Virus record (IMG/VR): IMGVR_UViG_3300021139_000006
Coordinates: 1 to 64,000 of that record
Reading direction: 5' to 3' (one strand)
DNA from: a virus
Length of the DNA: 64,000 nucleotides
In this document: positions 24,592-60,573 of the stretch, piece by piece
How the letters are laid out: each line of letters opens with the position of its first letter
Numbering within the stretch: the stretch's first letter is position 1
Made by a program: the position numbers and the translations under genes
The notes under the pieces: generated by a model
What the model was told of the DNA's origin: nothing
The model's database searches: none
What the model saw: the letters and a program-made list of their open reading frames with translations, nothing else

Positions 24592-24858
24592 TTATATGTG
24601 CAGTTTAGTTACTTTTATTTTAAGGTTATCGGTTCCTTTTATTAATCTATGGAAAATATCTCTCTTAATAAATATAGGTTTGTCTATAATGGCAGGTAAC
24701 TCGTCATCTATTTGAATCTTCCAATCTGTGGTGTGTAGTGGTTCAACTATACGATCTTCTCTGTCTCTGTGCCAGACCAGCTCTTCTTCAGGTACTTCTT
24801 GGGAAAATTCTCTAATATAATAGTCTTGTTCTTTCAGTTCGGTAAATGGATATTGCAT
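24592..24858 (-). CDS. small cupin-like phage protein
   Basis: The 88-residue protein reads ELVWHRDREDRIVEPL, then WKIQIDDELPAIIDKPIFI, then FHRLIKGTDNLKIKV. The pattern (LVWHRD.EDR.V......W..Q.D..LP.....I.KG) is one I associate with small single-domain cupin-like proteins in T4-like and marine phages. The function is unknown; the His residues could bind a metal. It is the first gene of its unit, preceded by a host-type promoter at 24863-24870 and a perfect palindrome at 24876-24898. Confidence 0.6.
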   Translation of the reverse strand: MQYPFTELKEQDYYIREFSQEVPEEELVWHRDREDRIVEPLHTTDWKIQIDDELPAIIDKPIFIKRDIFHRLIKGTDNLKIKVTKLHI

Positions 24859-24862
24859 TGTG

Positions 24863-24870
24863 CAAAAATA
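24863..24870 (-). promoter_or_regulatory. host-type -7 box TATTTTTG
   Basis: TATTTTTG on the minus strand fits the Bacteroidota TAnnTTTG box and lies just before the ATG at 24858. No clear TTTG -33 box was seen at the right distance; the expected place is filled by a palindrome. Confidence 0.45.
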
Positions 24871-24875
24871 AGTAT

Positions 24876-24898
24876 TAATTCGGATATTTTCCGAATTA
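24876..24898. promoter_or_regulatory. 9-bp perfect inverted repeat, candidate operator
   Basis: TAATTCGGA/TCCGAATTA with a 5-base loop TATTT sits immediately upstream of the TATTTTTG box. Its place over the promoter spacer and -33 region suits an operator for a dimeric repressor. It is not followed by a T-run, so it is not a terminator. Confidence 0.45.
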
Positions 24899-25056
24899 TT
24901 GATAATGGATTATCATTTTTTCTAGTAAATTTGATAATGATTAAATTACACCACCCCTTTTAGCGAGGTCTCCTTCGCTGTTAAAAGTATCTAGAATTCA
25001 ATCTGATTAAGGTTTTTGAATAATATTTTGTCGCAAATTTATACTATAATTGAGAC

Positions 25057-25087
25057 AAAAAAGAAACCCCCTATTGTGAGTAGGAGG
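25057..25087 (-). terminator. strong intrinsic terminator
   Basis: The stem CCTCCTA/TAGGGGG (one G-T pair) with a 7-base loop is followed on the minus strand by TTTCTTTTTT. It ends the transcription unit that includes the structured segment. The following 24901-25056 stretch holds only a GCGA/TCGC hairpin at about 24958-24986 and AT-rich DNA. Confidence 0.75.
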
Positions 25088-25336
25088 CTTACCTAGGTTC
25101 AGAAACCTAGTATTTTTTGCGGCCCGGTACGTCTACCAAGTCGGCTTTTTTGTTACCAGAGGTAACATAACTAACAAATGATTTGTTAGCGGGGCTTTAC
25201 GCCCAAAATGCAGACTTTCTAGAGTTGCATTCGGGGAAGCAGTTTACTCCAAATGGAAGGATTCACACAAGTTAACCTAGAATCTGTATCTAGGTGCAAA
25301 GACTTACGGTATCTATACCTACTAGTAATAAAATCG
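25057..25336 (-). ncRNA. candidate structured non-coding RNA or structured 3' leader
   Basis: No frame of useful length exists here. The minus strand can form at least eight hairpins in about 280 bases, several perfect: 25308-25319, 25275-25295 (7 bp), 25207-25231, 25192-25204 (GGGC/GCCC), 25171-25189 (8 bp), 25151-25167 (7 bp), 25093-25110 (7 bp, four-base loop) and the terminator at 25067-25087. Two A6 tracts separate some of them. It follows directly on the stop of the 203-residue gene, so it is either that gene's 3' untranslated region or a processed RNA. It does not show tRNA or tmRNA ends. Confidence 0.55.
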
Positions 25337-25948
25337 CTACCAGTATCCTGGGATACTTCCTCCTTTACCTGCCGACTTGCCTCCTAGATTCAGAAGTCTA
25401 GCATAGCGAGTGAGATGACAGCTCCAGTATCCTGGTTTAGTCTTGTCTTTCTTTGCTGGGCAGTTCATTCTGTCTGAAAAAGCTTTACGAGCTTTAGGGT
25501 CTGTTATCTTAGAAGATAGACCTCCATGCTTGTCTCCAAATGTAACCTTAATTACCTTACCGGTTTTAGGGTTGTGTGTAAAGACTACATACTTTTTACC
25601 TGAACCTGAATTACGCCTAGGGTGATTCAACTGGACACTCTTTCCATGGAACTCGGCTTCCATCAATAGGTAATCCTCAGTAAGGGGATAATCTAAAGGA
25701 ACTCTTATACCATTGTATTCACCAAACTCACCTAAGTCTGTTTCTGTTAAAATCTCTGTGTCAATCGTGTCAAGGACAATGTTACCTTCTTGAAGAAGTT
25801 CTCTAGCCTCACGGAACAAATGATAAAAGCTATTAGAGCCTGGGCGATAAATCGATTCATTTAATGGTGTTTGTGTTTTTATATGGTATTGGAGACCTTC
25901 AGATAAGGTTGACATATCGGAGGCCTCCATTAGGATTTGTTTACCCAT
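25337..25948 (-). CDS. candidate internal head protein with conserved basic C-terminal domain
   Basis: The 203-residue protein begins MGKQILMEASDM and has TPLNESIY at residues 28-34, both offering gp21-type (L)xE sites. The C-terminal half (KKYVVFTHNPKTGKVIKVTFGD, then DPKARKAFSDRMNCPAKKDKTKPGYWSCHLTRYA split by Cys residues) is a small basic domain I recall from many marine phage virion proteins of unknown role. Capsid packaging is inferred from the leader-like N-terminus and the neighbourhood. Confidence 0.6.
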   Translation of the reverse strand: MGKQILMEASDMSTLSEGLQYHIKTQTPLNESIYRPGSNSFYHLFREARELLQEGNIVLDTIDTEILTETDLGEFGEYNGIRVPLDYPLTEDYLLMEAEFHGKSVQLNHPRRNSGSGKKYVVFTHNPKTGKVIKVTFGDKHGGLSSKITDPKARKAFSDRMNCPAKKDKTKPGYWSCHLTRYARLLNLGGKSAGKGGSIPGYW

Positions 25949-60134: not shown

Positions 60135-60147
60135 AGAGTTTAACAGG

Positions 60148-60173
60148 GGGACATAGTTGTCCCTTTGTTGTTT
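60148..60173 (+). terminator. hairpin with T-rich tail
   Basis: GGGACA/TGTCCC with loop TAGT, followed by TTTGTTGTTT. It lies 14 bases after the last early gene. The 439-base gap 60135-60573 then has G-rich runs, a CGAAAA array, a promoter and an inverted repeat. Confidence 0.55.
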
Positions 60174-60320
60174 AGTATAGTGAAGTGATGGTTTAACCTC
60201 AGGGTCCAGGGGGAAGGGTAGCCGGAGCAGATCTTAGGGTTATTTTATATAATTATATATTATTTTAGATTTGGGGGATTTGGGGTGGGGTTAGAGAGGC
60301 AATCTGCTGGATCCCTCCAG

Positions 60321-60381
60321 CGAAAAAATTTCGTTAGTTACGAAAATTACTACTTTTTTACGAAAAAAATAAAACGAAAAC
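60321..60381. repeat. CGAAAA repeat array
   Basis: CGAAAA occurs at 60321, 60341, 60361 and 60375, the first three exactly 20 bases apart, in a run of A/T-rich DNA. Such evenly phased short repeats may be iterons or operator sites. They lie upstream of the promoter at 60445. Confidence 0.5.
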
Positions 60382-60444
60382 GATTGAAATTTACGATATT
60401 GGGAAACATATACCAAAAAGTTTGTCTGGTAACTTTGCAGCCCT

Positions 60445-60452
60445 TATCTTTG
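60445..60452 (+). promoter_or_regulatory. host-type promoter
   Basis: TATCTTTG with TTTG at 60421-60424 and a 20-base spacer. A second box TAACTTTG is at 60430-60437. It would drive the gene at 60574 and possibly the structured RNA beyond it. Confidence 0.65.
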
Positions 60453-60500
60453 CCATGCCATACCATTACTCACTAAAAACACCCTTAAGGGGCGACGGGT

Positions 60501-60537
60501 AAAGTATTGCCCATACTTTTACAATTAAAGTATGGTA
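60501..60537. promoter_or_regulatory. inverted/direct AAAGTAT repeats, candidate operator
   Basis: AAAGTAT (60501-60507) and ATACTTT (60513-60519) form a perfect inverted repeat with a 5-base loop, and a third AAAGTATGG copy begins at 60527. They lie between the promoter and the ATG at 60574, where a repressor could bind. Confidence 0.45.
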
Positions 60538-60573
60538 TTAATTAAAAGGCTTAAATAGCCACAATTTAAAGTT

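What the first reader, a model, noticed from the sequence alone, without database searches (positions are those of the whole stretch)
25057..25336. Hairpin-dense 280-nt segment ending in a strong terminator
At least eight hairpins, several perfect 7-8 bp stems with 3-4 base loops, are strung together downstream of a probable packaged-protein gene, then the unit ends at CCTCCTA...TAGGGGG-TTTCTTTTTT. Ordinary phage 3' ends need one hairpin, not eight.
Basis: seen in the sequence. Interest (0 to 1): 0.65.

Follow-up and report, generated by a model that had tools for sequence, protein, structure and literature searches.

The report
Phage RNA island resembling defence antidotes
The hairpin-rich stretch is real and looks like a small structured RNA made by a bacteriophage; at the same spot a related phage carries copies of RNAs that in bacteria act as, or are linked to, antidotes of self-destruct defences, so the spot may be where this virus lineage keeps RNA decoys that disarm its host, although the copy in this window matches no known antidote.

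Summary
Minus-strand 25057-25336 folds better than all shuffles (z about -4), carries four perfect stems of 7 bp or more against 0.24 expected per 280 nt, and ends in a good intrinsic terminator. It is no tRNA, Rfam family or small protein. Covariation is mixed. The closest relative (L003) has a decayed copy. A second (L004) shares a 43-nt segment and a 64-nt block that can form an H-type pseudoknot with one compensatory U-A to G-C change. L004's longer RNA also holds a hairpin module, strongly covarying across about 20 phages, that adjoins DUF3800 genes in phages P1 and Bbif-1 and one bacterial genome. A third relative (L179), homologous to L004 in its 5' domain, carries at this junction an Rfam abiF RNA and an Rfam DUF3800-VIII RNA, both above gathering score, with no Abi_2 protein on its 9.9-kb contig. 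abiF RNAs neutralise the AbiF toxin in trans (PMC12373285). Five sequenced phages also carry abiF RNA without Abi_2. My best reading: the segment is a fast-turning-over RNA cassette at a site where this lineage keeps antitoxin-like, probably anti-defence RNAs. The window copy itself matches no known antitoxin RNA, so its decoy function is inferred.

The parts
25337..25948 (-). Upstream gene, 203 aa, conserved phage protein of unknown function (phrog_7595), whose 3' end the RNA follows
25057..25336 (-). The hairpin-dense non-coding segment (the finding)
   Evidence: folding z -4.1, 0/100 shuffles; four perfect stems of 7 bp or more; no Rfam or tRNA match
25270..25312 (-). 5' segment shared with L004: UACCGUAAG loop and the hairpin 25275-25295 followed by GGUUAA
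   Evidence: 0 of 5000 shuffles align as well; coordinates
25201..25264 (-). Block shared with L004, possible H-type pseudoknot: S1 arms 25246-25253 and 25218-25225, S2 arms 25226-25232 and 25206-25212
   Evidence: 91-93% identity; one compensatory change, P about 0.009 by simulation; all 15 pairs kept
25192..25204 (-). Short hairpin GGGC-GUAAA-GCCC
   Evidence: weak in L003
25171..25189 (-). Perfect 8-bp hairpin CUAACAAA-UCA-UUUGUUAG
   Evidence: 1 of 8 pairs broken in L003
25151..25167 (-). Perfect 7-bp hairpin UGUUACC-UCU-GGUAACA
   Evidence: 2 of 7 pairs broken in L003
25123..25140 (-). 7-bp hairpin with GACG loop; the one 3' hairpin fully kept in L003, with one compensatory change
25093..25110 (-). 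Perfect 7-bp hairpin CUAGGUU-UCUG-AACCUAG
   Evidence: 4 of 7 pairs broken in L003
25057..25090 (-). Intrinsic terminator
   Evidence: 1 of 10 pairs broken in L003
24863..24938 (-). Conserved promoter/operator-like region of the next gene (inverted repeats ATTATCA..TGATAAT and TAATTCGG..CCGAATTA, then TATTTTTG)
   Evidence: about 88-93% identical in L003 and L004; TAnnTTTG element
24592..24858 (-). Downstream gene, 88 aa, no Pfam or PHROG match, 566 viral relatives

Best explanation
The segment is a non-coding RNA of a phage with a T4-type terminase and probably a Bacteroidota host. It is made as the 3' end of a late-gene transcript and closed by an intrinsic terminator in front of the next gene's own promoter. 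It occupies a junction at which related phages keep different antitoxin-like RNA modules: L179 has an abiF RNA and a DUF3800-VIII RNA, L004 a covarying DUF3800-linked hairpin plus the pseudoknot block, the window the pseudoknot block and hairpins, L003 a decayed copy, L005 none. The most likely job of the locus is counter-defence: during infection the phage makes RNAs shaped like the RNA partner of toxin or abortive-infection proteins, which bind the toxin and stop the infected cell from shutting down. Shown: structure, homology of the locus, and Rfam antitoxin-type RNA in a relative with no matching toxin gene on the contig held. Inferred: transcription, toxin binding, and that the window copy still works.
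For: Folding z about -4; terminator. Window-L004 homology: 64-nt block and 43-nt segment with a compensatory change. L004-L179 homology of the 5' domain with changes on both sides of two stems. L179: abiF RNA 38.6 bits and DUF3800-VIII RNA 43.6 bits, both above gathering; no Abi_2 gene in these records. L004: module R1, covarying over 20 sequences, beside DUF3800 genes in P1, Bbif-1 and a bacterial contig. abiF RNA neutralises AbiF in trans (PMC12373285). abiF RNA in five sequenced phages without Abi_2. Precedent pseudo-ToxI (PMC3475682).
Against: The window RNA matches neither abiF, DUF3800-VIII nor R1. Direct window-L179 similarity is not significant. L003's copy is decayed and its 3' hairpins show no structural constraint. 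The pseudoknot rests on two sequences. DUF3800 is not a proven toxin. L179 and L004 are short contigs, so a toxin gene could lie elsewhere. No expression data.
Confidence: 0.42

Rival explanations
1. An ordinary but over-built 3' UTR: stacked hairpins protect the late mRNA from 3' exonucleases and end in a terminator that insulates the next promoter. No trans function.
For: Position directly after a stop codon, same strand, terminator then promoter. Only the terminator region, the GACG hairpin and the promoter survive well in L003. Sequence of the hairpins turns over fast.
Against: A protective role needs one stem, yet the window and L004 share loop and stem sequence at 91-93% in a block that can form a pseudoknot; L179 holds specific Rfam sRNA families at this junction; L005 manages with a simple terminator.
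Confidence: 0.27
2. A decaying relic: the ancestor had a functional RNA as in L004 or L179, the window copy lost the recognised modules and is drifting.
For: The R1 module of L004 is missing in the window; L003 is plainly degenerate; the window has no Rfam match.
Against: The window RNA is as unusually stable as L004's and L179's, and the 64-nt block is 91-93% identical to L004's although the upstream proteins are only 71% identical.
Confidence: 0.17
3. A cis-acting regulatory element (riboswitch, antiterminator or attenuator) that controls read-through into the next gene.
For: A pseudoknot with alternative pairings (CATTTGG/CCGAATG competes) ahead of a terminator.
Against: The next gene has its own conserved promoter-like region after the terminator; the R1 module occurs once or twice per genome in unrelated contexts rather than before one gene family; no riboswitch family matches.
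Confidence: 0.08
4. A DNA element: replication origin, recombination site or mobile palindromic repeat.
For: Palindromes on both strands in the longest gap of this part of the gene run.
Against: Minus-strand folding is clearly stronger than plus; no cumulative-skew extreme at this point; no copy elsewhere in the record; G-U pairs appear in the conserved helices.
Confidence: 0.06

Closest known systems
abiF RNA (Rfam RF03085; RCd22, the RNA antitoxin of AbiF in C. difficile, PMC12373285)
   Same: Present at the homologous junction of relative L179; small structured RNA ending in a terminator; acts in trans on a toxin protein in the studied case.
   Different: The window copy has no abiF motif; no Abi_2 gene in the phage.
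DUF3800 RNAs (Rfam DUF3800-VIII, RF03075)
   Same: Present at the homologous junction of L179; L004 carries an unclassified hairpin that adjoins DUF3800 genes elsewhere.
   Different: No match in the window; function of DUF3800 RNAs and proteins is unproven.
Pseudo-ToxI of phage phiTE and type III antitoxin RNAs (ToxI, antiQ, TenpI, CptI)
   Same: Phage-encoded RNA, pseudoknot, proposed toxin mimicry.
   Different: No tandem repeat unit, no sequence or covariance match, no toxin gene next to it.
Large phage RNAs GOLLD and ROOL
   Same: Hairpin-rich, non-coding, found in phages, often among tRNA genes.
   Different: Much smaller; no Rfam match to either family.

Membership tests
abiF RNA (RF03085) | Covariance-model score at or above gathering (37 bits) | tested here: not met
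   Window and whole record: none. Relative L179: 38.6 bits, met.
abiF RNA (RF03085) | Neighbouring Abi_2/AbiF toxin gene | tested here: not met
   No PF07751 match in G000, G001, G002, G003, G021.
DUF3800-VIII RNA (RF03075) | Covariance-model score at or above gathering (40.2 bits) | tested here: not met
   Window: none. L179: 43.6 bits, met.
   Best in the window 15 bits, E 0.09, elsewhere; L004 49.8 bits.
Type III antitoxin RNA | Tandem repeats of a 34-50 nt pseudoknot unit | tested here: not met
   No tandem repeat in 24800-25500; a single putative pseudoknot only.
Type III antitoxin RNA | Neutralises a toxin by direct RNA-protein binding | not testable with these tools
   Needs an experiment.
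tRNA or tmRNA | ARAGORN or Rfam RF00005 match | tested here: not met
L004/L179 junction RNA lineage | Same gene junction and significant sequence similarity to L004's RNA | tested here: met
   similarity to L179 alone is not significant.

The most novel reading that the evidence does not exclude
Phages of many kinds carry RNA counter-defence islands: toxin-less antitoxin-type RNAs (abiF, DUF3800-type, the new R1 hairpin), often beside tRNA genes, that titrate abortive-infection and toxin-antitoxin effectors. The window segment is one such island, and its pseudoknot block is a new antitoxin-mimic RNA class.
Probability: 0.3. Interest if true: 0.85.

Novelty: new variant of a known kind. Interest (0 to 1): 0.6.

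Why it matters
RNA mimicry of antitoxins by phages is, as far as I found, established experimentally mainly for pseudo-ToxI. A junction that swaps abiF, DUF3800-type and unclassified pseudoknot RNAs between close relatives, together with abiF RNAs in phages that show no Abi_2 gene, would turn phage 'intergenic' hairpin clusters into readable anti-defence loci and give cheap tests for the unknown function of DUF3800 proteins.

Tried and rejected
tRNA relic (ARAGORN and Rfam tRNA negative). Small protein: no minus-strand ORF of 40 aa or more in the segment; the one open frame across the pseudoknot block has no start codon in the window and its differences from L004 fit pairing. GOLLD/ROOL and other Rfam RNAs. 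HK022 put-like antiterminator: considered for R1, set aside because R1 occurs once or twice per genome in unrelated contexts. Pattern AAACTGCTTCCCNGAATG: hits in L082, L083, L085 lie inside ORFs; the 38 hits in genome contigs are about what chance gives and were not read one by one. L143 of the R1 scan lies in a coding region. L174 is a chance hit. BLAST of the pseudoknot block against 395 Bacteroidota genomes gave only short matches of the kind chance gives. R1 in bacterial chromosomes: 2 of 369 genomes of one class, 0 of 398 of one phylum; one of the two sits beside a broken DUF3800 gene. The 3' hairpins as conserved structure: rejected for L003.

Full report
Observation. The segment lies on the minus strand between gene 25337-25948(-) and gene 24592-24858(-), both in a long minus-strand gene run. 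The minus strand folds to -83.1 kcal/mol, z -4.1, with no shuffle as stable, and stays at z -3.7 without the terminator; a 306-nt version gives z -4.1. The plus strand is weaker. Four perfect stems of 7 bp or more lie in 280 nt where 0.24 are expected, the densest spot of the window by that count. It ends in a 10-bp terminator with a U tract. No tRNA, Rfam family or tandem repeat was found. A low-shuffle sliding scan was noisy: the slice at 24977 came out lowest at z -7.2, the exact segment at -2.8.

Phage. The record is a 70.6-kb viral contig. Its terminase is nearest to Flavobacterium phages vB_FspM_immuto (41%), and TAnnTTTG promoter elements of the Bacteroidota type occur around the locus; a Bacteroidota host is therefore likely but inferred.

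Homologues at the same junction. The upstream gene has 475 viral relatives; among the nearest ones that were read, most have a gap of a few bases to the next ORF, a minority 120-520 bases. In the window's own clade the junction differs. L003 (88% protein identity) keeps only the 3' half and the downstream promoter region; its hairpins are broken about as often as chance (8 of 39 pairs against 10.9 expected, P = 0.16) and its RNA is no longer unusually stable. L005 (69%) has a 119-nt gap with a simple terminator. L004 (71%) has a roughly 410-nt hairpin-rich region with its own terminator (z -2.9 to -3.2). L179 has a 440-nt region (z -3.1 for its 314-nt 3' part).

Window to L004. Two segments match: 25270-25312 (0 of 5000 shuffles as good) and 25201-25264 (91-93%). 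The second can form an H-type pseudoknot of 8 + 7 bp. Of the four core differences, two form one compensatory U-A to G-C exchange, one turns G-U into G-C, and one is in a loop; random placement gives so clean a result in 0.9% of trials. All 15 pairs are kept in both sequences. With two sequences this is suggestive, not proof, and the helix was chosen after looking at the sequences.

L004 to a widespread module. L004's RNA contains CUCAUCUACCACGUGUAGAAGGAGUUAC. BLAST and pattern scans found it, mostly outside annotated genes, in Vibrio, Geobacillus, Bacillus SPbeta-like, P1/P7, Rhizobium, Streptococcus, Bifidobacterium and Mammaliicoccus phages and in 17 viral contigs, one of them a coding chance hit. 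Across 20 sequences the inner stem covaries (UCUAC/GUAGA, UCAAC/GUUGA, UCCGC/GCGGA) around a loop CAYGU: 95% of cells paired, five pairs with double changes, no shuffle reaches the covariation score, slid controls far lower. G-U pairs point to this strand. The model built from it (R1) finds one, sometimes two, copies per phage genome and none in the window phage or L003. It lies beside and convergent to DUF3800 genes in P1 (rlfA), phage Bbif-1 and a bacterial contig, about 90 nt upstream of a DUF3800-VIII RNA in phi3T, and in several phages near tRNA genes. The R1 stretch itself gave no Rfam match.

L004 to L179. Their 5' domains are homologous (0 of 500 and 0 of 5000 shuffles): the hairpin CACCC-AAA-GGGUG is unchanged, and two further hairpins keep their loops (CUUGU; UACCUWAAG) while their stems change on both sides (sequences). 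Direct window-L179 similarity is not significant, so the window's place in this lineage of RNAs rests on L004.

What L179 carries. In the same junction Rfam finds an abiF RNA (38.6 bits, gathering 37) and a DUF3800-VIII RNA (43.6 bits, gathering 40.2). abiF RNAs are toxin-neutralising RNAs: RCd22 of C. difficile binds and inhibits AbiF in cis and in trans, like a type III antitoxin (PMC12373285). No Abi_2 protein is found in the window phage's, L003's, L004's, L005's or L179's records; L179's contig is only 9.9 kb, L004's 12 kb, and DUF3800 was not searched in L179's record. abiF RNAs at 50-58 bits also occur in five sequenced phages with no Abi_2 match, including a T7-like phage between connector and scaffold genes. 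An abiF RNA was reported in cyanophage S-CREM1 without an anti-defence reading in the section consulted (PMC9964418). DUF3800 is predicted to have an RNase H fold and is linked to non-coding RNAs (PMC10910872); it is not a proven toxin.

Mechanism. Phage-borne antitoxin mimics have a precedent: phiTE pseudo-ToxI RNA suppresses ToxIN (PMC3475682). The simplest reading of a junction that holds different antitoxin-type RNAs in close relatives, shows no toxin genes, turns over fast and decays in some lineages is an RNA counter-defence cassette. Shown here: structure, position, homology, Rfam identity in L179, toxin absence in the records held. Inferred: transcription, binding to a host toxin, and activity of the window copy. 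The main rivals are an over-built 3' UTR and a decaying relic; they remain open because the window RNA matches no known antitoxin family.

Membership. The window RNA is not filed as abiF, DUF3800-VIII, R1 or type III antitoxin RNA, since the tested defining features were not met; 'works like' is a separate and still inferred claim.

Noticed in passing
24863-24938 (-) and the equivalents in L003, L004: Region upstream of the 88-aa gene with inverted repeats ATTATCA..TGATAAT and TAATTCGG..CCGAATTA before a TATTTTTG element, 88-93% conserved; looks like an operator.
   Followed up: partly
L270, L271, L272, L273, L274, each 1201-1237: abiF RNAs (50-58 bits) in five sequenced phages without an Abi_2 match, one between structural genes of a T7-like phage; BLAST hints at 74 phage records, many of them mycobacteriophages.
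   Followed up: partly
L136 1333 on, L155 2590 on, L159 1062 on, L179 1145 on: A second shared RNA module (CAAAGG..stem with loop RCCCGAUAA) upstream of DUF3800-VIII in phi3T and L179, also in Geobacillus and Mammaliicoccus phages.
   Followed up: partly
L156 (Rhizobium phage RHph_TM30): R1 copies inside an array of tRNAs and repeated small structured elements, upstream of a TROVE-domain (Ro60-like) gene.
   Followed up: no
L134 (about 1.0 kb gap) and L135 (about 1.4 kb gap): Long non-coding regions of two Vibrio phages share R1, a 37-nt identical segment and a terminator but match no Rfam RNA other than tRNA.
   Followed up: no
window 60135-60560 (+): Another gene-poor region of the window with the highest density of 6-bp stems; not examined further.
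   Followed up: no
L041 3529-4050: Another relative of the upstream gene followed by a 522-nt gap without ORFs of 60 aa that folds well (z -3.3); no good R1 match there.
   Followed up: no
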